NCBI GenBank assembly: GCA_019054805.1
Contig: JAHQIY010000033.1
Coordinates: 186,001-250,000 of the forward strand
Source: Brachionus manjavacas
Taxonomy: Eukaryota; Rotifera; Eurotatoria; Ploima; Brachionidae
Length of the DNA stretch: 64,000 bases
Direction: 5' to 3'
How positions within the stretch are numbered: the stretch's first letter is position 1; the number at the start of each line of letters is the position of its first letter. Below the pieces are notes generated by a model. That model was not told the origin of the DNA, ran no database searches, and was given only the letters and a program-made list of their open reading frames with translations. Shown in pieces: positions 1 to 31,978 of the stretch. A program made the translations under genes and the position numbers.

Positions 1-1555
1 AAAAGATCAATTATACATTTCAGTTTATATATTCCCCCTAATAAACTTCTAAATTTTAATATATTCGAAAAGATAAAAAGGAATTGTAAAAAATTATGTT
101 CTCGGGGGTGACTTAAACGCCAAAACAAAACAAATAGGATGCAAAGGAGAAAACGAAAATGGAACAATTTTAGAAAGCATTATTAACGAGCTTAATTTCA
201 CAGTAATCAATAATAAGTGCCCAACCTTTAACATATTCAATAGGGAATATTTTGAAATTCTTGATTTATTCTTAGTCTCAACATCATTGATTGATAAAAT
301 CACTGATTTTAGGGTGCTAAATAATCAAGATATGACCAGTGATCATTTTCCAATTGAGGCATGCATAAATTTTGACTACTCAGTTATCCCTAAAACACAA
401 CCAAAAAAGCTTAATTATAAAAAAGCAAATTGGTTATTATTCCGTGAGATCCTAAAAGGTCAAAACTCAGGATTAAATTCAGCATCAATTGACGAACTAA
501 ATGAAGAAATTACCCAAAAATTAATTTCTGCAGCTCATAAAAGCATTCCATACCAAACTAACAGAATTTTCAAAACAAGTCTCCCACCAAACATTGTCAG
601 TATAATTAAGGAACGTAGAAAAATTAGAAGAATATTTCAAAAAACTCGTTGTCAAAATACTAAGAAAATATTTAACCAAATGACTTCAGAGTTAAGAAGC
701 AGTTTAAAAAATTTTTGGAATCAAAACTGGTCTGATTTTATTAAAAAAATTGGGAAAAATCCACTTTCAAGTAGACCATTCTGGAAAAAAATTAATAAAT
801 TTCGATCAAAAAAAGGATCTGGATTAATACCTACCTTAATCTGTAATAATTATGAAATTAGAACTGATGAAGAAAAGGCTACCTTCTTTGGTGAATTTCT
901 CCAAAAAACTTTTAGTCCGAATAATGATCTAATTAATCCCCAAAAAGATAGAGAAATAATTGATTATAATCTTGAGTTTTTTAATAAGGAAAATCAATGC
1001 AAATTTGACGAGCCTGTTAGCACTAAAGAGATTACATCAGCGATAAAAAGGTTAAAAGAGGAAGCATCTTCGGGACCAGATCAAATTCATAACCTTATGC
1101 TAAAAAATGTACCTCAAAATATTCTAAAAGATATTATGTATCTTTTTAGTTTAAATCTAAGAGATAGTAAAATACCGAATGCGTGGAAATCTGCTAACAT
1201 TACTATGATACCTAAAAAGTCAAATTTAACACAAGACCCGGCTTACTACCGTCCAATCAGTATGACAAGCTGTCTAGGAAAACTTTTAGAACGTATCGTC
1301 TACTCAAGATTATATAGTTTTTTAGAACAAAACTCATTACTAATTCAGGAGCAATCAGGTTTTAAAAAAAATCGACGAACCGCGGATAATCTTTTCTTCC
1401 TTATTCAAAAAATTGTAGAATCATTTAATAGAAAGAAGAAAGTTTGTTCCCTATTTTTTGATATCTCCAAAGCTTTCGATAGGGTTTGGCATGATGGTCT
1501 TATTTATAAATTAATAAAAATGAACCTTCCCTCTTACCCTAATACATTGGATTAA
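1..1555 (+). pseudogene. LINE endonuclease - reverse transcriptase, N-terminal part
   Basis: Endonuclease/RT polyprotein of the LINE. The frame used from 107 onward carries the endonuclease motifs GDLNAK and SDH, then a linker, then the RT fingers and palm up to DISKAFDRVWHDGLIYKLI near 1456-1515. Upstream of 107 the endonuclease motif YIPPN reads in a different frame, which points to one extra G in the G-run at 104-108. The frame ends at a stop after 1552 because of a second slip; the next RT block (WINSFLDSRSF) continues in another frame from 1548. The start of the protein lies outside the window. Confidence 0.85.
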
Positions 1556-2138
1556 TTCATTCTTAGACTCAAGATCATTTAAAGTAGATGTAAATGGTCA
1601 CATGAGTGATGAATACCACATTACTGCAGGTGTTCCTCAAGGCTCGGTAATTAGTCCATTACTTTTTAGCATTTTTATCAATGATATTCCTAAAAGAAAT
1701 AAAACAAATAGTGAATACTCTCTTCTTTTTGCTGATGACTTGGTCACATTTTATATTTTTAAGAAAAAAGGAAATTTAGAAAATAAGATAAACAAATACT
1801 TAGACGAACTAGAAAAATGGCTCTTCAAGTGGAAGATGAAAATATCTGTTGAAAAGTCTTGTTACATTGTCTTCACTAAATATAATAAGGAAAATATTGA
1901 CTTAAATCTAAAAATATATGAAAATAAAATTGAGAGTCAAAAGGAAATCAAGTTTTTAGGTATAAAATTTGATTCAAAATTAACCTTTACCCCAATGGTT
2001 GATGAAATAACACAGCGTTGTAGTTCACGGTTGAACTTAATAAAAATATTGTCAAACAAAAAATGGGGTCTTAATTATAACACATTAGGAAACCTATATA
2101 AATCTTTAATCTGGATTAATACCTACCTTAATCTGTAA
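1548..2138 (+). pseudogene. LINE reverse transcriptase, catalytic part, first copy
   Basis: Continuation of the RT domain in a shifted frame. It has AGVPQGSVISPLLF near 1625-1665 and the catalytic FADDL box at 1728-1742, followed by the RT thumb. The reading frame runs through the duplication junction at about 2110 and ends in a short out-of-frame tail with a stop at 2138. It is therefore a chimeric end and not a natural C-terminus. Confidence 0.8.
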
Positions 2139-2847
2139 TAATTATGAAATTAGAACTGATGAAGAAAAGGCTACCTTCTTTGGTGAATTTCTCCAAAAAA
2201 CTTTTAGTCCGAATAATGATCTAATTAATCCCCAAAAAGATAGAGAAATAATTGATTATAATCTTGAGTTTTTTAATAAGGAAAATCAATGCAAATTTGA
2301 CGAGCCTGTTAGCACTAAAGAGATTACATCAGCGATAAAAAGGTTAAAAGAGGAAGCATCTTCGGGACCAGATCAAATTCATAACCTTATGCTAAAAAAT
2401 GTACCTCAAAATATTCTAAAAGATATTATGTATCTTTTTAGTTTAAATCTAAGAGATAGTAAAATACCGAATGCGTGGAAATCTGCTAACATTACTATGA
2501 TACCTAAAAAGTCAAATTTAACACAAGACCCGGCTTACTACCGTCCAATCAGTATGACAAGCTGTCTAGGAAAACTTTTAGAACGTATCGTCTACTCAAG
2601 ATTATATAGTTTTTTAGAACAAAACTCATTACTAATTCAGGAGCAATCAGGTTTTAAAAAAAATCGACGAACCGCGGATAATCTTTTCTTCCTTATTCAA
2701 AAAATTGTAGAATCATTTAATAGAAAGAAGAAAGTTTGTTCCCTATTTTTTGATATCTCCAAAGCTTTCGATAGGGTTTGGCATGATGGTCTTATTTATA
2801 AATTAATAAAAATGAACCTTCCCTCTTACCCTAATACATTGGATTAA
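2113..2847 (+). pseudogene. LINE reverse transcriptase N-terminal part, second copy
   Basis: Second copy of the RT fingers/palm segment made by the 1,292-bp duplication. It is open from just after the junction to the stop at 2847 and contains the DISKAFDRVWH motif near 2748-2780. It has no natural start codon at its beginning and no endonuclease domain. It carries the same stop and frame slip as the first copy. Confidence 0.8.
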
Positions 2848-3766
2848 TTCATTCTTAGACTCAAGATCATTTAAAGTAGATGTAAATGGTCACATGAGTG
2901 ATGAATACCACATTACTGCAGGTGTTCCTCAAGGCTCGGTAATTAGTCCATTACTTTTTAGCATTTTTATCAATGATATTCCTAAAAGAAATAAAACAAA
3001 TAGTGAATACTCTCTTCTTTTTGCTGATGACTTGGTCACATTTTATATTTTTAAGAAAAAAGGAAATTTAGAAAATAAGATAAACAAATACTTAGACGAA
3101 CTAGAAAAATGGCTCTTCAAGTGGAAGATGAAAATATCTGTTGAAAAGTCTTGTTACATTGTCTTCACTAAATATAATAAGGAAAATATTGACTTAAATC
3201 TAAAAATATATGAAAATAAAATTGAGAGTCAAAAGGAAATCAAGTTTTTAGGTATAAAATTTGATTCAAAATTAACCTTTACCCCAATGGTTGATGAAAT
3301 AACACAGCGTTGTAGTTCACGGTTGAACTTAATAAAAATATTGTCAAACAAAAAATGGGGTCTTAATTATAACACATTAGGAAACCTATATAAATCTTTA
3401 ATCGGATCTATAATTGATTACTCTTTTCCATGTCTGAATTCATTTTCAGAGACAAACATTAAAAAAATTCAAGTCTTACAAAACTCAGCAATTCGTTTTA
3501 TACTTAAACTAAAATATGATACTCCTTCCGATATTCTGCATCATGAGGCCTTCAATAAACTTAAATTCTTAACTGTCTCGAATCGACTTTTTGAATTAAG
3601 CGAAAGATATGTAGCGGGAGGACTGCGTCATTCTGTTCCATTAGTTATCAAGCTGGTTGATGAATATATAGCGGGCCTTGAATCAAGGTATGTTGAATAC
3701 CCGACTCCATTGTGTAATTGTTACCTTACTATTTCTTCTTTTTTTCCTGAAACCTTAACTGTGTAA
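2840..3766 (+). pseudogene. LINE reverse transcriptase catalytic and C-terminal part, second copy
   Basis: RT palm and thumb with AGVPQGSVISPLLF, the catalytic FADDL at 3020-3034 and the element's natural C-terminal region. That region includes the LQNSAIRFIL-type helix, typical of LINEs after the RT, and a final PTPLCN block. It stops at 3764-3766 and is followed by a short 3' UTR and poly(A). A similar final block (PLCN..LTIRSFFP) recurs at about 5580-5640, so that stretch comes from a related LINE. Confidence 0.85.
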
Positions 3767-6261: not shown

Positions 6262-7935
6262 TTATTCATCAATTCCTAGCTGCTTAAAAAGTAAACAATT
6301 GTAGTGATTTTTAACACTACTTAATAAAGTGTATAAGTGATTTTTGCATTCAGACAAAAACTTATTTTCACAGATAATTTTGTCGATTTCATTTCGAATA
6401 TTCAAATATTCCAAATACATGGTGACAAAATATCCATTCAAAACAAGATTGACTGTAATGCATTCAACTGACGGATTAACTAATTTATTTAGAATATTCG
6501 TCACATAATAGATTGCTTGAAATTTGTTTATCAAATGCACTAATTTAATTGTATCGTGATTAAAATTTGTTTCATCTATTCTATTTAATATTTGATCATA
6601 TTTCTCAGCTAAATGTGTGCCTATTTCACCGATATTATTTCTAGAGGAGCATAAATCTAAAATTCTGCCTTTTTTTAAATGAATTATCATCATATTTATA
6701 ATAATAGCATTTAATAAATTCACGTGTTCTTTTTCAAGCATACATAAACTTACCAATAAGGCTCTAATGTTATCAGGAGCATCTCTTGATTCCAATAGAT
6801 TAGAAATATTTCGACTATTAGGATTTTTTGTCAACAATTCTTTTTCAATTAAGTTAAAATTTTTGTCTCTGAAAACAAGCTTAACACTTTCTCCTTCTTT
6901 AAATAAAACAGAAAAAATTTCATCTAAAATTAACAATACATTTCCTGAGTCAAAAACACTGGACTGATCAGCATCTTCTATCAAGCATGGCATTAATTTT
7001 TGTTTGTTCATTTTTAGACTTTCAATATATCGCAAATTTACATCAAATTCATATTTTTCAAAGCAATATTCTAATTCGAATTTGAAGCCTTTGATAAATT
7101 TATCAATTATTTGTAGCATGTCAAAAGAATAAAATTTCCTTATGTTCCGAAAATTATTTCTCAAGTTTCTAAATTCGTACATGCGCATTGAATTTAGTAA
7201 GTAATCGAATTTTTTAGATCCTATAAATTCTAAATTTCTCTCTATTTTATCCTTGTCTCCATTTAAAATACAAAAATAAATCCAACTTTCATGTTTAAGC
7301 TGCACAAAATTTAAAAAATCACATAGATAAAAGATTGGAAGAGAAGTATTGTCATCGAATTGCTCAAATTTCTTCATTAATTCCATACCATAAGACCAAC
7401 TAAAATATCCTTTTTGCAAATCGTAAACATTATAATAGCTATCTTTTGAAAATATTGTATATAAACTTTTAGTCGAATTAAAACCATTGGCATAATAAGC
7501 TAAAAATTCATCACTATTAGTTTCAAGATAAGATATATTCAAATCTTTGATAGCTTGAATAATTACTGACTTATTGAATAAGCCAGGATTTAATTTTAAT
7601 TTACCAATTTCAAAAGACACCGGATTCTGATTCAAGTCTTGGGCAAACCTTTCCATTCTCAGTCTTTTTTTAGAATCGTTATCTTTTTCCGACTTGAATA
7701 CTATTAAATGAATTGAAGGCTTTAATTTGGTAAAGAACTTTATTAAATATTCATATAATGTGTCGTAATTTCCGCCATACTGGCCATTTTGATGGCAGAA
7801 CATTATCATGTATGCCAATTGCATACCATCGATTAAAAACTTAATTTCATCAAGTTTAATTTGACGAAAAACAAGGTTTCTTTTGCTCGAATTGTAAAGT
7901 CTATCAATATAGGCCTCGATTTTGAAAAAGCCCAT
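6262..7935 (-). CDS. Asteroid-like XPG/PIN-domain protein
   Basis: Intronless 557-aa protein starting MGFFKIEAYI. The first ~200 residues resemble the XPG/FEN1-type nuclease fold of Asteroid-family proteins: LIDGMQLAYMI with D36, then the Asteroid-like GGNYD at 54-58, an acidic LETNSDEF block (138-144), and a FSKDSYY strand (162-168). Several metal-binding positions look lost: the usual Asp in the VFDG motif is Lys81, and the second Asp of the DSD-type motif is Tyr. It may therefore be a non-catalytic member. The rest is helical with no domain I recognise. A poly(A) signal sits 48 nt downstream. Family membership is likely; function is not known. Confidence 0.7.
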   Translation of the reverse strand: MGFFKIEAYIDRLYNSSKRNLVFRQIKLDEIKFLIDGMQLAYMIMFCHQNGQYGGNYDTLYEYLIKFFTKLKPSIHLIVFKSEKDNDSKKRLRMERFAQDLNQNPVSFEIGKLKLNPGLFNKSVIIQAIKDLNISYLETNSDEFLAYYANGFNSTKSLYTIFSKDSYYNVYDLQKGYFSWSYGMELMKKFEQFDDNTSLPIFYLCDFLNFVQLKHESWIYFCILNGDKDKIERNLEFIGSKKFDYLLNSMRMYEFRNLRNNFRNIRKFYSFDMLQIIDKFIKGFKFELEYCFEKYEFDVNLRYIESLKMNKQKLMPCLIEDADQSSVFDSGNVLLILDEIFSVLFKEGESVKLVFRDKNFNLIEKELLTKNPNSRNISNLLESRDAPDNIRALLVSLCMLEKEHVNLLNAIIINMMIIHLKKGRILDLCSSRNNIGEIGTHLAEKYDQILNRIDETNFNHDTIKLVHLINKFQAIYYVTNILNKLVNPSVECITVNLVLNGYFVTMYLEYLNIRNEIDKIICENKFLSECKNHLYTLLSSVKNHYNCLLFKQLGIDE

Positions 7936-11180: not shown

Positions 11181-13526
11181 ATGCCTAAAAAAAAAGAAAT
11201 TCTTAGCGAAGCGAGTGATGAAAAAAATAAAAAAACTAGACACAACTTTGAATTAAGTGAGCAAAATGAAAAGTTTTTTAATCCACATTGTTTGCAAAAC
11301 AAAAACTTTTATTATTCAGAAGAGCAGTTTTCAGCGAAAAACAGAATTATTGACGAAAAATCCGCCAGCGAAAAGTACAGAAGAAGAAAAAACGAAGACA
11401 AAAGCACTTTTCATTTTGGCCAGCGAAAGCTCCTTTTATCGGAAATTGAGTTTTTAACTTTGTGCCTAAATGAAACAATTGAGAGAGAGAATAGAGAAAA
11501 ATTCATTTTTGTCTACGCTGGAGCAGCACCCGGCATCCACATGCCCGTACTAATGAACATGTTTCCATTCATTGAAAATTACATTCTTGTAGATCCAGCT
11601 AAATTCAAAATTGATAGCTCAAAAATTAATAAAAACATAAAATATGAGCTGATTAATGAATGCTTTACGGACAAAATGGCTGAATCAATCCGCAAGAGGT
11701 ATCCACAACATGAAATTCTTTTCGTGTCGGACATTCGCACTGCCAACTATAGAATTTTGACAAGAGCCGACACTGAGCTCAAAGTTGAACAGGACATGTT
11801 GGACCAAATGAACTGGCATCATATTTTACAGCCCTACAAGTCTATGTTAAAATTTAGGCTGCCTTATGTTGGAAACGATAAGTGTGCTAAGACCAGCGTT
11901 GACTATTTGCAGGGAAAAATTTACCTTCAAACATGGCAAGGTAAAACATCAAGCGAAACAAGGTTGATTGTGGACAAAAAAGCATCCATTAAGAGCTACG
12001 ACTGTGTTGAATATGAAGATAAATTGTTCAGATTTAATACAGTGGAGCGTGTTTGTGGATACAGACATCATGTGATTGCCCCAGGTATTGATCATTGCTA
12101 TGATTGTAGGACTGAAGTTTTTATTCTAGAAGAATACTTTAAAATTAGGCTCAAAATGAAAGAATTTTTTAATTGTTTTTTAACGTATTTATTTGATTTG
12201 AAAAAAATTGAAGATGTCATAGTTGAAATAAATTCAAATTTGAACGCTGATAAAAAAAGAGATGAATTGACAATCACTTTGGACGATGAACAATTTTGGT
12301 ACAGTGTTTCTTTTAGCGAAATTTTCTATAAAGCCGATTTAAAAAGGCTATTTAGTCGAGATAGCATTGTGAAGCCAGGAACAAAAAATTCCAACTCATC
12401 GTCTGATGAAGACGACAGCAAAGAAAAATTGGAATTGCATAAAAAAATGTGCAAATCGCCTCATACTTTACAAAATACTAAATGTTCACAATTAATAAAA
12501 AATGTAAATTTTGAAAACTTTAGGCTTTTGACTGATGACTATCGGCAAATGCTAAAAGCAAAATTTATATCAACTGACTCGACCACTGTTTACTATAAGG
12601 AGAGAAGCATGAGATTAAGTGAAATTGAGTTTCTGCTCGAAGCCTGTCTTTATTTGATTAAAGAAAAAAACATTACTAAAAACAAGAAAATAGTATGCTT
12701 TTACGCTGGCTCAGCAGCTAGTAAGCGATTAGACAAACTTCAAATTATGTTTCCTTTTATAAAATTTGTTCTTTATGATCCGAAAAAATTTGACATCGAA
12801 CAATCAGAAATGATTGATATAAGACAAGAATGTCTGACTGAAAACATTGCTTTAGACCTTAGAAAAGACTATGATGATTGGATTCGTCTTTTTATTAGTA
12901 ACATTAAACGAACAGGAAATTTTAAATCAATTGAAACCTCAAAGCTAGATAGAGAGGACTTGAGCCTACAAAAAAGTGTTCATTGTCTGCTTAAATCTCA
13001 TTTAAGTATGCTTAGGTTTACAGTTCCAAATTCTTCAACAAATGAATTTGAGTACTTTGATGGTAAAATTTTTTTGAAACCTTGGTCTCATAGATCATCA
13101 CTGGATACCAATTTGATTGTTTACGAAAATTCAAAGCCAAAAAAGTATTTTTACAAAAACTACAAAAATCAGTTGTATAGATTTAATTGCGTAGAGAGAA
13201 CTTTGACTTATGAACACAGTGTGAGAGAATTTGGAATTGATTTTTGCTATGATTGTAGATGTGAAGTTTACATATTTGAATTATATCTAAATAATCTAGA
13301 TTATGTATTTTCGGTTTTGAATGTAGGAAAAATAAGGCCGGCTTTTACCAAAGTCCAAGAAATGATACAAAATTTGAGTATTTATTTGAATTCAAAAAAT
13401 AAGCGAATAATTGTGCAGTTTGACAAAAAAAAATATTCGCTTTTATTCACTGACATTTATTATGAGAAAAAAATTGATGATTTATTTAATACTAAAACAG
13501 TATGTGCAGTTGACAAGAAATTTTAA
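11181..13526 (+). CDS. Tandem VP39-like cap 2'-O-methyltransferase, second half inactive
   Basis: Intronless 781-aa protein made of two copies of the poxvirus VP39 / NCLDV 'poly(A) polymerase regulatory subunit' methyltransferase fold. This family adds a 2'-O-methyl to the mRNA cap using S-adenosylmethionine. Copy 1 (about 75-320) has the SAM loop YAGAAPG (112-118) and apparent K-D-K-E tetrad K83, D184, K224, E259. Copy 2 (about 468-705) has AGSAAS in place of the loop and S476, N574, R612, D642 at the tetrad positions, so it should be inactive. Both copies share a C-terminal block, RFN.VER...GID.CYDCR.EV (near 284-312 and 667-695). A Ser/Asp-rich linker (402-413) separates them. The N-terminal ~75 residues are Lys/Glu-rich. 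Transfer from a large DNA virus followed by duplication is my inference. Confidence 0.75.
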   Translation: MPKKKEILSEASDEKNKKTRHNFELSEQNEKFFNPHCLQNKNFYYSEEQFSAKNRIIDEKSASEKYRRRKNEDKSTFHFGQRKLLLSEIEFLTLCLNETIERENREKFIFVYAGAAPGIHMPVLMNMFPFIENYILVDPAKFKIDSSKINKNIKYELINECFTDKMAESIRKRYPQHEILFVSDIRTANYRILTRADTELKVEQDMLDQMNWHHILQPYKSMLKFRLPYVGNDKCAKTSVDYLQGKIYLQTWQGKTSSETRLIVDKKASIKSYDCVEYEDKLFRFNTVERVCGYRHHVIAPGIDHCYDCRTEVFILEEYFKIRLKMKEFFNCFLTYLFDLKKIEDVIVEINSNLNADKKRDELTITLDDEQFWYSVSFSEIFYKADLKRLFSRDSIVKPGTKNSNSSSDEDDSKEKLELHKKMCKSPHTLQNTKCSQLIKNVNFENFRLLTDDYRQMLKAKFISTDSTTVYYKERSMRLSEIEFLLEACLYLIKEKNITKNKKIVCFYAGSAASKRLDKLQIMFPFIKFVLYDPKKFDIEQSEMIDIRQECLTENIALDLRKDYDDWIRLFISNIKRTGNFKSIETSKLDREDLSLQKSVHCLLKSHLSMLRFTVPNSSTNEFEYFDGKIFLKPWSHRSSLDTNLIVYENSKPKKYFYKNYKNQLYRFNCVERTLTYEHSVREFGIDFCYDCRCEVYIFELYLNNLDYVFSVLNVGKIRPAFTKVQEMIQNLSIYLNSKNKRIIVQFDKKKYSLLFTDIYYEKKIDDLFNTKTVCAVDKKF

Positions 13527-18489: not shown

Positions 18490-20190
18490 AGAATCGAAGA
18501 GTTCAACCCTGAATTGTGTGATGACAAAGCATCCAGTTGGTCGAAATGGCACGAACACTTCGACCGAGCCATCAAACTTAGTCAGCTCAAACCAGAGCTA
18601 AAGATTGATGCGCTGAAGTACTATGGTGGTGAAATTCTGCTTGATATTATCAAGGATGTTGAGTTCCCAAACACAACCACCACCACAACCTTAACACAAA
18701 CCAGCTCTCAAGGCAACGGTGACGCTACTAGTACGACCGACACGCACGAAATCGCGTACAGAGACCTCATTAGGAAAGTCACTGATCACCTTAACGCTGA
18801 GAGCAACCCCGAACAGAACCTTGCGAGACTTCGTGAAATAGGACAGTACCTCGACGAGCCATTCACTGATTTTCTCAAAAGGGTAAGGGAAAAAGCCAGG
18901 CTCTGCAGCTTCACCGACAACGTCACAAGAGACCGCGAAATCAAGTGGATCAAAATCGGGAAGTCTAGAGACCCTAAGATCAAAGCTAAAGGTCTCGAGC
19001 CAAACGTGACCCTGAATGACCTGATCAAATATGCCAAAATCCAAGAGACAGTACAGAAGCAGCTCAAAGAGCTGGACAGAATTGAACAAAATGAAAATTT
19101 GGCAATCAACAAATTTAACAAAGAAACAAAACAGTATGCTCATACCAAGCAGCAACAAGCTAGCTCAAACATAAAGCCTAAAGCAACACAGAATCAAGTG
19201 TGCGGTAACTGTGGGTATGCGCTACCACACAGGGGCCAATGTCCAGCTCATGGCAAAACTTGCAAAAACTGCAACAAGCGTAACCACTTTGCAAGTGTGT
19301 GCAGATCGAGCCGAGAGAACAAGAAAAAGGTTGCTAGACTAGCGTACGAAACAACTTCAGACTCGTCTGACGGAGAGCAAAAGTTCGGTTCAATGAACTT
19401 CATGACCGTTCGCAAGATCGGCCAGACTATCAAGAACTGGTTCATGCCGGTTCTGTCAGTCTTCATGCTCCTCACAAGTGTCAAGTTTGGGCTCGACACT
19501 GGCGCTGAAGTAGACGTCATCGACGAATTGACATACGATCGCTTACGCAATAAACCAATTCTTTCAAGATGCCGAACCAAGCTGTTTCCGTATGGCTCAA
19601 ATACACCAATCTCAACGCTTGGTGAATTCAAGACACATGTCAAGTGTCGCGATGGGAACAGAGCTGTCAGGTTTATAGTCACCAAAGGCAACAATGGTAA
19701 CCTGATGAGCTACAAGACCGCAGTGCTGTTAGGACTCATCGCTCAGATTGGTAACATTGACCAGATCGACAATGAGACACAAAAGTACGCCAAACGTTAC
19801 AAAAATCTGTTCTCAAACAAGATTGGCACTCTCAAGAATTACCAAATCAAGCTCCACATCAAAGATTCAGTGAAACCGGTCCAACACAAGTTAAGACCCA
19901 TACCGTTCAATATACGTATACTAGTGGAAACCGAAATCATGAACCTTCTTGAGAACGACATCATCGAGCCAGTCGAAGGACCAACCGAATGGGTATCCGC
20001 GTTGGTACCAGTGCCAAAGCCTGGTAGACCAAGCGAAATTCGACTATGCTCAGATGCAAGAGCCGCTAACAAAGCGATTGTTCGTGAAAGACACGTTACG
20101 CCATCAATTGAAGACCTAATTGTCAAGCTAAACGGCGCAACGTATTTCTCGAAATTTGACCTCAAAAACGGTATAACCAAGAAGTGCTGA
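18490..20190 (+). pseudogene. Gypsy gag - protease - start of reverse transcriptase
   Basis: One frame from 18490 (reading RIEEFNPEL before CDDKASSW; the first codons may be cut) to a stop at 20188. It includes a gag capsid-like helical region, a Cys/His region with CGNCGY near 19200 and the zinc knuckle CKNCNKRNHFASVC at 19261-19302. A retropepsin with LDTGAEVDVID follows near 19492, and then the RT fingers to FSKFDLKNG near 20150-20170. A base lost just after the FDLKNG motif shifts the frame and creates the stop. Gag and pol share one frame here, without a separate gag stop. Confidence 0.85.
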
Positions 20191-20594
20191 GCGGAAAATC
20201 TCGTAACATTACAACTTTCTGTACACACATGGGTTTGTTTAGATACAAAAGATTGAATTTTGGTGTCAATGCAGCATCAGAACTCTTCCAAAAAGCCGTC
20301 GAATACGTTCTAAGTGGTCTCAAGAACGTCATCAACATCAGTGACGACATTATCGATTTTGGCAAAACCAAAGAAGAACACGACAAAGCTCTTGAGATGG
20401 TCCTGCAACGACTAGAAGAGTCTGGCCTGACAGTCAACCGCAATAAATGCCAATTTAGTAAGACAAAGCTCGACTTTTTTGGTCTCACTTTTTCAAGCGA
20501 AGGTATCAACCTTGACCAAAAGAAAGTCGAAGCATTGGCAAACTCAATGGCACCTAAAACAGTCAGCGAACTTCGCAGCCTTCTTCGACAATAG
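20171..20594 (+). pseudogene. Gypsy reverse transcriptase, catalytic part
   Basis: The RT domain continues in the +1 frame: TTFCTHMGLFRYKRLNFGVN, then the catalytic ISDDIIDFG with the two Asp codons at 20343-20348, then the thumb up to SELRSLL. The frame stops at 20592. Compared with related elements about a dozen codons of the RT/RNase H linker appear deleted near 20586, and an in-frame TAG follows at 20618-20620 in the next part. Confidence 0.85.
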
Positions 20595-21874
20595 TCGCTC
20601 CACTCAACATGCTAACCTAGAAGGATGTCAAGTTCGAATGGTCAAACTCTCAAGAACAAGCTTTTAAAGAGCTCAAGAAAGCGATTGCAACGCAAGCCAT
20701 GGCATACTATGACCCAAGCAAACGAACACAAGTTATTGTCGATGCTAGTCCAGTGGGCCTTGGCGCTGTAATGATGCAACACCCGCCGAATGAACCAAAC
20801 AATAAACAAATTGTGCTTTTTGCCAGTCGATCACTTACGCCAACAGAGCAGCGCTACAGCCAAGTCGAACGCGAAGCTCTAGCGTGTGTATGGGCCATGG
20901 AAAAACTGCACCTATACCTCTATGGTCAAGAGTTCGATCTTGTCACAGACAACAAGACTGTAGAGCTGATACTGCGAAACCCTGATTCGAAGCCCAAAGC
21001 ACGCATCGAGCGATGGTGTCTGAGAATCCAACCCTACAGGTATGTAGTGGTACACAGGTCTGGCAAGTCAAACATAGCTGACTTTTTGAGCAGAAGCCCA
21101 ATACCAATCGACACCAAAGAAACGTACCATGAGAAAATCAGCGAAGCGTATATCAACATGGAAGTCAATAGTGCGGGAAAAAGAACGGTGAGGCGTTCAG
21201 AAATCGCTCGCGAAACCGCAAAAGACGAGCTGCTCAAAGAAGTCAAGAACATGATCGAGAATCGCCCATACAAAGCAATCAAGTATTACGAAAAGCTCAG
21301 AAACGAACTTTCCACAACACAAGATGGCATCATACTAAAAGGCAACCAGATAATAGTTCCATCATCTCTGATACCCCGCATGGTTAACGTGGCACACAGT
21401 GGTCATCTAGGCATCCTTAAAACAAAGACGTTGCTTAGAAATTCTGTTTGGTTCCAAGATTTGGACAAAACTGTTGAACAACAGCTCAAGTCATGTCACA
21501 AATGCCAAGTAAACACAAGCAACAAAACGTATAAGCACCCAATAATTGTTTCGCAAATGCCTGTAAACCCGTGGCAGAACTTAGCCATCGATTTCTTCAA
21601 CTCACGGAAATTCCCAAAATATCTCATGGTTGTCATTGATGAACATTCGCGATACCCAATTGTTCGCTTTATATCCTCGTTGAATGCCAAAACGGTGATC
21701 AAACAGCTAAACAGCATATTCAGTCACTTTGGCATCCCGCAAAGAATAAAAACGGACAATGGTCCACCGTTCAACTCTCACGAGTTCAAAATGTTCGCCA
21801 TAGACAACGATATCAAACACCAAATGCAAATGGTCTTGAGGAACGATTTATGGCATCATTGGGTAAGGTCCTGA
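20595..21874 (+). pseudogene. Gypsy RNase H and integrase
   Basis: After a stop at 20618-20620 the frame runs from VKFEWSNSQEQAFKELK into RNase H (VIVDASPVGLGAVMMQ, ASRSLTPTEQRYSQVEREALACVWA, TDNKTVEL). Next comes the integrase H2C2 finger (HSGHLGI...CHKCQ) and the catalytic core: AIDFF with Asp at 21590-21592 and KTDNGPPF with Asp at 21755-21757. A slip near 21820 moves the NANGLEERF block, with the catalytic Glu, into the next frame. The true tail of this frame (after DIKHQ) is spurious. Confidence 0.85.
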
Positions 21875-22778
21875 GGAATGCAGGCTCAAACAACTTCGAA
21901 GACGAGTTGGATGAATTCCTCAGAAACTATCGCGCAACACCCCACAAAACAACCAAAGTAGCCCCATATGATATGCTTTTCAAATCAAAAGCTACAACAG
22001 CTCGTTTACCACACAACAGATTTAAAAATCAGGCACATGACAAACAAGCTGAAGTAGCGATGCTAAGGCAAAAATGAAAAGTTACGCTGACTCAAAACGC
22101 AAGGTACAAGAGCCGAATTTGAAAATCGGCGACATCATCATTCGACTCGAGAACCAACGTACCAAAAGTCAGTCGTTTTTCAACAACAAGCCATACACCA
22201 TTGTCAATATCAAAGACACAATGTGCATAATCGAAAACGATATACACACATTGGCGGTTGATACCAGCAAGCTCAAGCTGTACAACAGCATTTTAAGCGA
22301 ACCAAAACAACTAAGTGTAAAAGGTGGCAAACCAGCAAAGAAATACTCCACATTGTACATTCCGCGATCAGCCATTATGCATGAAAAAGGCGATGTGCCA
22401 GATCAACATCAAAAACAACCAGATCTAACAGAACAACAACACGCAGATCATGACCAATCAGTATCAAATGAGCACGGCAATCAACACAACCAGACTATTC
22501 ATAATCAGCTAGAACCAGTGATGGAGAGCACCACTCAGCAAGACATGTCGAATAGCGACTACTATGACCTCAGCACATCTGTTTCCAACAATGCCGCAAC
22601 GGAGACTGATAACGCTGCAGAAGAAATGGAAACGGACGAGTCGCAAGATGAAGAGAAAGAAGAAATAGTGGTGCAAGAGAAAGAAAGGAAGAAAAGAGGT
22701 AGAAAAAAAGGGTCAAAGAACGTTGCGTATCAGCCAACAAAAACATACGAGTTGAGAAACAGAATAGTCAAGGAATAA
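21824..22778 (+). pseudogene. Gypsy integrase C-terminal region with basic AT-hook-like tail
   Basis: It starts in the frame of NANGLEERF (catalytic Glu near 21838) and runs through the end of the integrase core (FLRNYRATPHKTTKVAPYDML) to a stop at 22075-22077. It then slips by overlap into 22074-22778. That last part has the integrase SH3-like region (LKIGDIIIRLENQ) and a long Gln/His- and Asp/Glu-rich tail. It ends in a basic KKRGRKKGSKN stretch that resembles an AT-hook. Such tails could guide insertion toward chromatin, but that is inference. Confidence 0.8.
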
Positions 22779-31740: not shown

Positions 31741-31978
31741 CGAAGGCCTTAAAATTTTTAAATTCTCGGCGGTTTTCTTTTTACTCTTTTATAAGTCGAA
31801 ATGAAGAATTGCCGATCTTTTAAAAGCGATCGTATAAGATCTTCTAATGTTATTTGTGTTCCTCACTTTCATATTTTTAACTCTAATACTAGAAATATTA
31901 AAATTTGTTTGAAATAATGCTTGCTTTTTATAAAGCCGAAAGAGTTTATTTTTCAAAAAAAAAGTAGTTGATTTTTAA

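What the first reader, a model, noticed from the sequence alone, without database searches (positions are those of the whole stretch)
11181..13526. Fused pair of VP39-like cap methyltransferase domains, one active-looking and one with the whole catalytic tetrad lost
The sequence shows two homologous halves. Half 1 has a SAM loop YAGAAPG and K83/D184/K224/E259. At the same alignment positions half 2 has AGSAAS and S476/N574/R612/D642, while both keep the GID.CYDCR.EV block. The K-D-K-E tetrad is established for poxvirus VP39, which doubles as the poly(A) polymerase processivity factor. By inference this cellular gene came from a large DNA virus, duplicated internally, and turned its second half into a pseudoenzyme, perhaps an RNA-binding or scaffold module. 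That would be a new domain architecture.
Basis: partly seen in the sequence, partly recalled or inferred. Interest (0 to 1): 0.85.

Follow-up and report, generated by a model that had tools for sequence, protein, structure and literature searches.

The report
Rotifer cap methyltransferase with dead twin
A rotifer gene encodes what looks like an mRNA-cap-modifying enzyme fused to a second copy of itself that has lost its active site but is still preserved, and that probably works as a built-in helper.

Summary

The window is from a Brachionus rotifer (best match B. plicatilis BpHYR1_005028, 95% over 100%). The dead copy is shared by related two-copy proteins: one clade (100/99), D to N and G to S in 9 of 9. 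It is an old, constrained pseudoenzyme. One relative has the order reversed; two more distant proteins also pair one intact with one broken unit.

Viral capture is not shown: the trees keep the rotifer clade apart from the viral-type rows, but whether it branches among or beside the eukaryote rows is unresolved.

Most likely it works like CMTR2: an active cap methyltransferase with an attached non-catalytic methyltransferase fold that supports it. Function is inferred. New variant of a known kind.

The parts
11181..13526 (+). Whole gene: one open frame of 781 aa, two tandem VP39-type units (active, then dead)
   Evidence: ORF; PF01358 3.1e-27; B. plicatilis BpHYR1_005028, 95% over 100%, also 781 aa
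11280..12386 (+). Repeat unit 1, residues 34-402: PHxLQN motif, methyltransferase core, C-terminal module
   Evidence: tblastn of half 2 against the window matches this stretch, E 3e-39
11370..12134 (+). Active-looking methyltransferase core (residues 64-318) with K83, D184, K224, E259, R261 and SAM loop YAGAAPG
11427..11429 (+). K83 codon (VP39 K41)
11730..11732 (+). D184 codon (VP39 D138)
11850..11852 (+). K224 codon (VP39 K175)
11955..11957 (+). E259 codon (VP39 E207)
12135..12365 (+). C-terminal module of unit 1 (residues 319-395; mostly helix-helix-strand-strand-helix in the model)
   Evidence: repeated after the dead half
12366..12500 (+). Linker, acidic/serine-rich, then second PHTLQN motif (residues 396-440)
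   Evidence: (pLDDT under 50 at 401-412)
12573..13280 (+). Dead methyltransferase core (residues 465-700): S476, N574, R612, D642, N644, SAM loop YAGSAAS
12606..12608 (+). S476 codon at the place of K83
12900..12902 (+). N574 codon at the place of D184
   Evidence: N in 9 of 9 window-type dead units
13014..13016 (+). R612 codon at the place of K224
   Evidence: R in 8 of 9 window-type dead units, K in P0006
13104..13106 (+). D642 codon at the place of E259
   Evidence: D in 7 and E in 2 of 9
13281..13523 (+). C-terminal module of the dead unit and tail (residues 701-781)

Best explanation
It is a cellular (Brachionus rotifer) RNA-cap 2'-O-methyltransferase of the VP39 type, made of one catalytic unit and one fused, catalytically dead copy that arose by duplication of the whole unit early in this protein group. 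Half 1 binds SAM and a capped RNA end and methylates a cap-proximal ribose (inferred from the intact tetrad, fold and family). Half 2 no longer methylates (inferred from loss of the first-shell residues). It works as a built-in helper: most likely it holds the RNA body, or shapes and stabilises the active half, as the non-catalytic domain of CMTR2 supports that enzyme. Shown here: duplication, predicted fold of both halves, site losses, conservation of the dead half. Inferred: activity of half 1, inactivity and helper role of half 2, which nucleotide and which RNAs are modified.
For: Fold and family. Tetrad: of 237 units with all four positions aligned (43 partial stretches set aside), 222 are KDKE; 12 of the 15 exceptions are in the tandem proteins, and in each of the 11 proteins with two complete units exactly one is KDKE. 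Dead half constrained: 9 of 9 window-type dead units have D184 to N and G118 to S; 20 columns are fixed in the 8 active units and never shared by the dead ones (one column with only 6 dead letters); dead units form one clade, 100/99; between the window and B. plicatilis residues 441-700 changed at 10 of 260 (3.8%), against 5 of 255 (2.0%) in the active core and 7.4-8.9% in linker, N-terminus and C-modules. VP39 variants K41A, D138E and K175C are folded but inactive (passages of PMC7736282). [quoted passage not shown] VP39-type enzymes act on cap-adjacent riboses in trypanosomes and vaccinia (passages of PMC9479742).
Against: No biochemical or expression data. The two halves were not tested for contact: the tool gives no inter-domain error and the full model has pTM 0.63. 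Charge gives only a weak hint of RNA binding: dead cores are more positive than their active partner in 5 of 8 proteins, less in 2 (the window among them), equal in 1; net -3 to +6 in the nine, -5 in P0011. The dead half also lost the m7G-pocket acid (E279, VP39 E233: K, R or L in 9 of 9). Nine rotifer-type proteins are single-unit as deposited (P0013-P0017, P0019-P0022), so a dead partner is not obligatory. PMC7736282 notes that the K-D-K motif was not essential in one engineered VP39 variant (passage), so loss of K41 alone would not prove inactivity. Whether rotifers also have CMTR1/CMTR2 could not be tested.
Confidence: 0.6

Rival explanations
1. Half 2 is an RNA-end or small-molecule sensor, not a helper of catalysis: it keeps part of the SAM pocket and reads SAM/SAH or modified RNA to regulate the enzyme.
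For: The YAG of the SAM loop and the aspartate at position 138 (half-1 numbering) are kept in all nine window-type dead units while the catalytic residues go (the partial dead units of P0009, P0010 and P0012 have E there).
Against: The last SAM-loop glycine is serine in 9 of 9, and D184, which in VP39 also contacts the SAM amino group (PMC7736282 passage), is asparagine in 9 of 9.
Confidence: 0.15
2. The protein acts in poly(A)-tail biology, like the VP39 processivity factor of vaccinia poly(A) polymerase or the Megavirus Mg18 protein that methylates poly(A) tails; the dead half is the polymerase-binding part.
For: VP39 in the vaccinia polymerase heterodimer is among the fold matches (2gaf, 2ga9); Mg18 methylates poly(A) internally (abstract and passages of PMC4402537).
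Against: Nothing found here ties the protein to polyadenylation. A VP55-type polymerase in the host could not be looked for (genome search did not complete). Many eukaryote relatives are single units, some with other domains (accession lists).
Confidence: 0.1
3. It is a spliced-leader cap enzyme like trypanosome TbMTr2/TbMTr3, making a hypermethylated cap 4.
For: TbMTr2 and TbMTr3 are VP39-like and modify the spliced-leader cap (passages of PMC9479742).
Against: An EST survey found no trans-spliced leader in Brachionus plicatilis, though it could not exclude a small subset of transcripts (passages of PMC1925144).
Confidence: 0.05
4. The gene was captured from a large DNA virus and duplicated in the rotifer lineage.
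For: Large DNA viruses have this family (L001 beside an RPB1-like ORF; Pithovirus LCPAC304); the gene is one open frame; whether the rotifer clade branches among the eukaryote rows or between them and the viral-type rows is not resolved (p-AU 0.497).
Against: The trees separate rotifer plus eukaryote rows from the viral-type rows (47 against 15, 99/95; 42 against 20, 100/96); the rotifer clade is never inside the viral-type rows. Limits: midpoint root, poxviral VP39 not in the tree, only P0121 and P0202 of the viral-type rows are tied to a virus by name or contig.
Confidence: 0.2
5. The second half is a decaying leftover without function.
For: It evolves faster than half 1: mean pairwise identity 54% against 69% over 28 pairs of 8 proteins. 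The deposited B. calyciflorus model P0002 leaves the repeat near its end.
Against: Two complete units in eight related proteins, the same substitutions fixed, a predicted fold, and fewer changes than in linkers.
Confidence: 0.05

Closest known systems
Poxvirus VP39 (PF01358), cap 2'-O-methyltransferase and poly(A) polymerase subunit
   Different: VP39 is a single unit; here two units, each with a C-terminal module of about 80 aa; no evidence of a polymerase partner.
Trypanosome TbMTr2/TbMTr3 (VP39-like cap-4 methyltransferases)
   Same: Cellular eukaryotic VP39-type cap enzymes (passages of PMC9479742).
   Different: Not aligned here; the passages seen mention no second dead unit; B. plicatilis ESTs show no spliced leader (PMC1925144 passages).
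Human CMTR2
   Same: Catalytic Rossmann methyltransferase domain followed by a non-catalytic one in one chain, the latter needed for activity (passages of PMC12592727).
B. plicatilis BpHYR1_005028 (P0001) and B. calyciflorus P0002, P0005
   Same: Same two-unit protein; 95%, 63% and 49% identity over 100%, 82% and 93%; same kind of dead unit.
   Different: Deposited as hypothetical/unnamed or with an automatic cap-methyltransferase name; no description of the dead half found.

Membership tests
PF01358 / VP39-type 2'-O-methyltransferase (half 1) | Profile match above the curated cut-off | tested here: met
   82 bits against cut-off 25.4 for residues 1-400
PF01358 / VP39-type 2'-O-methyltransferase (half 1) | K-D-K-E tetrad and SAM loop | tested here: met
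   K83, D184, K224, E259, R261; YAGAAPG
PF01358 / VP39-type 2'-O-methyltransferase (half 1) | VP39 fold (predicted model) | tested here: met
PF01358 / VP39-type 2'-O-methyltransferase (half 1) | 2'-O-methyl transfer on capped RNA | not testable with these tools
   Needs an enzyme assay
VP39 fold (half 2) | Homology to half 1 and VP39 fold (predicted model) | tested here: met
VP39-type active methyltransferase (half 2) | K-D-K-E tetrad | tested here: not met
   S-N-R-D; the place of R261 is N644
VP39-type active methyltransferase (half 2) | Pfam PF01358 match when searched alone | tested here: not met
   No family at E up to 10 for residues 431-781, nor at E up to 1 for residues 401-781; the whole protein does report 2 stretches
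CMTR2 | CMTR-type sequence or nearest fold | tested here: inconclusive
   CMTR1 structures rank well below VP39; no CMTR2 sequence or structure compared
CMTR2 (works like) | Active-looking plus non-catalytic Rossmann methyltransferase domain in one chain | tested here: met
   for this protein; CMTR2 side from PMC12592727 passages
Gene of viral origin | Placement of the rotifer clade inside or next to viral rows | tested here: inconclusive
   Never inside the viral-type rows; a position between them and the eukaryote rows is not rejected, p-AU 0.497

The most novel reading that the evidence does not exclude
Animals of the rotifer lineage have a further kind of cap methyltransferase, VP39-type, in which a duplicated dead copy is a needed part of the enzyme; nature reached the CMTR2 design (live plus dead methyltransferase fold) again with the VP39 fold, in both domain orders and in more than one lineage (rotifer-type A-D and D-A proteins, and P0082 and P0078).
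Probability: 0.4. Interest if true: 0.75.

Novelty: new variant of a known kind. Interest (0 to 1): 0.55.

Why it matters
Animals are generally said to have two cap methyltransferases (abstract of PMC9479742, listing). A conserved VP39-type enzyme in Brachionus would add another kind. A fused series of live and dead copies, with the order reversed in one relative, makes the question 'what does a dead methyltransferase partner do?' testable by removing one half. Gene editing exists for a rotifer (title and start of abstract of PMC10395877, listing).

Tried and rejected
Spliced-leader cap-4 role: lowered, because an EST survey of B. plicatilis found no spliced leader (PMC1925144 passages).

Recent, separate duplication in each species: rejected, since dead units form their own clade (100/99). 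For the reversed protein P0011, its two halves as sisters is disfavoured, p-AU 0.026.

Independence of the dead units of P0078 and P0082 from the rotifer-type dead units: their active units lie outside the rotifer-type clade, but the dead units have long branches and a joint clade with the rotifer-type dead units is not rejected (p-AU 0.13 with P0078, 0.243 with P0082, 0.079 with both). Independence is likely, not proven. Neither protein was found in viral contigs; their hosts are unknown.

Standalone dead units: a search with half 2, limited to proteins of about 193-614 aa and to near relatives, found P0018, P0009, P0010, P0241 and P0242; the last two are single-unit proteins with KDKE and KNKE.

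Family in bacteria or archaea: one pattern scan of genome contigs gave 59 pattern matches and no relative; it reaches only places with those exact words. Viral contigs: two alignment scans gave one and the same contig.

Positive charge as a sign of RNA binding by half 2: a weak trend only, 5 of 8 pairs, and not in the window's own protein.

dN/dS of the halves: not possible, no DNA of the relatives. Expression: no data. CMTR1/CMTR2, paralogs and a VP55-like polymerase in the host genome: not tested, the genome search did not complete.

Literature: the listings (held library only) show no paper whose title or shown start of abstract describes a two-unit VP39-type protein; only passages of seven papers were looked at (PMC9479742, PMC1925144, PMC7736282, PMC9458431, PMC12592727, PMC4402537, PMC8447722), and PMC8904806 gave no passage for the words asked.

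Full report
WHAT IS THERE. The ORF at 11181-13526 (+) runs from ATG to stop, 781 aa. A tblastn of both halves against the window gave only the ORF itself and each half matching the other. The repeat is residues 34-402 and 426-780, 30-32% identical (E 3e-39; 4e-48 in the direct comparison). Each unit consists of a PHxLQN motif, a methyltransferase core and a C-terminal module of about 80 aa. A predicted model (mean pLDDT 84, pTM 0.63, 30 sequences) shows nearly the same order of helices and strands in both units, the C-terminal module included.

SOURCE. The best of 572 protein matches (120 listed) is Brachionus plicatilis BpHYR1_005028, 95% identical over 100% of the length and also 781 aa; B. 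calyciflorus has P0002 (63% over 82%) and P0005 (49% over 93%). The window has 21-44% GC in 2-kb steps, no tRNA and no Rfam match, and holds retrotransposon and transposase genes. It is a Brachionus rotifer; 95% suggests another species of the plicatilis group (inference). So the gene is cellular.

ACTIVE SITE. The VP39 alignment puts K83, D184, K224 and E259 on VP39 K41, D138, K175 and E207; R261 falls on R209. In VP39 the variants K41A, D138E and K175C are folded but inactive, and D138-K175-E207-R209 is described as the essential network, while the K-D-K motif was not essential in one engineered variant (passages of PMC7736282). In half 2 all five positions differ: S476, N574, R612, D642, N644. 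The m7G-pocket acid E279 (VP39 E233; its role from PMC4402537 passages) is K, R or L in 9 of 9 dead units and E in 94% of the other units compared.

HOW UNUSUAL. Over 243 proteins (242 fetched plus the window's) with a profile of the core, 237 units have all four tetrad positions aligned; 43 partial stretches were set aside. Of the 237, 222 are KDKE and 15 are not. Twelve of the 15 are in tandem proteins: nine dead units of the window type (window, P0001-P0007, P0018, whose first unit is only partial), P0011, P0078 and P0082. The other three are P0053 of Rotaria sordida (KDTE; it has a further 72-residue piece of a unit), P0113 and P0242 (KNKE, single-unit). In each of the 11 proteins with two complete units, exactly one unit is KDKE. 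The fetched set is the best 120 of each of two searches plus two, so it is not a random sample.

CONSERVATION OF THE DEAD HALF. In the nine window-type dead units D184 is N and G118 is S in 9 of 9; K83 is S, M or G; K224 is R in 8 of 9 (K in P0006); E259 is D in 7 and E in 2. Twenty columns are fixed in the 8 active units and never shared by dead ones. The dead half evolves faster (mean pairwise identity 54% against 69% over 28 pairs), but between the window and B. plicatilis residues 441-700 changed at 3.8% (10 of 260), against 2.0% in the active core (5 of 255), 8.9% in the linker (4 of 45), 7.9% in the N-terminus (5 of 63) and 7.4-7.8% in the C-modules. These counts are small, but the pattern is that of a constrained pseudoenzyme. 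dN/dS could not be computed.

HISTORY. With the four tetrad columns left out, a careful tree of 62 units gives one rotifer-type clade (25 rows, 100/99). In it the dead units are one clade (8 rows, 100/99; with P0011's dead unit 97/80), apart from an active clade (13 rows, 97/94). A quick tree of 120 units agrees (dead 9 rows SH 99; with P0011 86). One duplication made the dead unit, and the pairs then diverged together. P0011 has the reversed order, dead first; its halves as sisters is disfavoured (p-AU 0.026). Single-unit relatives (P0013-P0017, P0019-P0022, as deposited) lie in the same clade, so the partner can be missing. Only the Brachionus rows carry a name; calling the rest rotifers is inference. 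The one named bdelloid row, P0053 of Rotaria, falls outside the clade.

VIRAL ORIGIN. A viral relative was found on a large contig beside an RPB1-like ORF (L001; the RPB1 reading is mine). The trees separate rotifer plus eukaryote rows from the viral-type rows (47 against 15, 99/95; 42 against 20, 100/96, where the viral-type rows do not form one group), and labelled relatives include Naegleria, Thecamonas, Monosiga and Palpitomonas. Inside that set the place of the rotifer clade is unsure: among eukaryotes (81/82), beside them, and a grouping of rotifer with viral rows against the other 22 costs only 0.24 log units (p-AU 0.497). The root is a midpoint and VP39 itself is absent.

SIMILAR DESIGNS. 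P0082 (live then dead) and P0078 (dead then live) begin with what look like membrane anchors (my reading) and belong, by their active units, outside the rotifer-type clade. A common origin of all dead units is not rejected (p-AU 0.079 to 0.243). CMTR2 has the same principle with another methyltransferase type: a catalytic and a non-catalytic Rossmann domain, the latter needed for methylation (passages of PMC12592727). In poxviruses D12 is an inactive 2'-O-methyltransferase homologue (passage of PMC4402537).

MECHANISM. Most likely half 1 is a working cap 2'-O-methyltransferase and half 2 a non-catalytic support for RNA placement or for the stability and activity of half 1 (0.6). VP39 methylates mainly the first cap-adjacent nucleotide and can go on to the second and third (passages of PMC9479742). 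For RNA binding by half 2 the charges give only a weak trend (5 of 8 pairs, not the window's). A spliced-leader role is unlikely since B. plicatilis ESTs show no leader (PMC1925144 passages).

VERDICT. Observation confirmed; interpretation partly supported. The protein is already deposited from B. plicatilis under an automatic name, but I found no description of the dead half or the paired architecture (listings). New variant of a known kind; interest 0.55.

Noticed in passing
31976-64000: A 13.4-kb tandem repeat, copies starting at 31976, 45368 and 58773 (the third cut by the window end), 99.2-99.5% alike. Copies 1 and 2 hold an AAA-ATPase gene piece (Pfam 1.3e-40 for copy 1; proteasome-like by my reading; broken into two frames in copy 2) and hAT-type pieces. 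Real tandem duplication or an assembly effect; not decided.
   Followed up: partly
817-3407: A 1.3-kb direct repeat, 99.9% identical, inside a reverse-transcriptase gene.
   Followed up: no
18490-22778: A Ty3/gypsy-like element (RNase H and integrase by Pfam; gag and RT parts by my reading of the frames), at 42-44% GC over 18-22 kb against about 22-32% on either side.
   Followed up: no
P0053 (Rotaria sordida protein, no locus): A bdelloid VP39-type unit lacks the catalytic lysine (KDTE) and is fused to an RNase_T exonuclease domain; it has a further 72-residue piece of a unit, possibly a gene-model error.
   Followed up: partly
P0113 and P0242 (unnamed proteins): Single-unit relatives with only the catalytic aspartate changed to asparagine (KNKE); P0101, sister of P0113 in the tree, is KDKE.
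   Followed up: no
P0078 and P0082 (unnamed proteins): Two more live/dead VP39-type pairs, in opposite orders, both starting with a hydrophobic stretch.
   Followed up: partly
P0085, P0094, P0213, P0221, P0239: VP39-type units fused to other methyltransferase domains by the precomputed Pfam accessions (PF01728 in P0085; PF13847/PF08241 and similar in the others; meaning of the accessions partly recalled).
   Followed up: no
6262-7935 (-): A 557-aa ORF without any Pfam match at E up to 1 or PDB match at E up to 1.
   Followed up: partly
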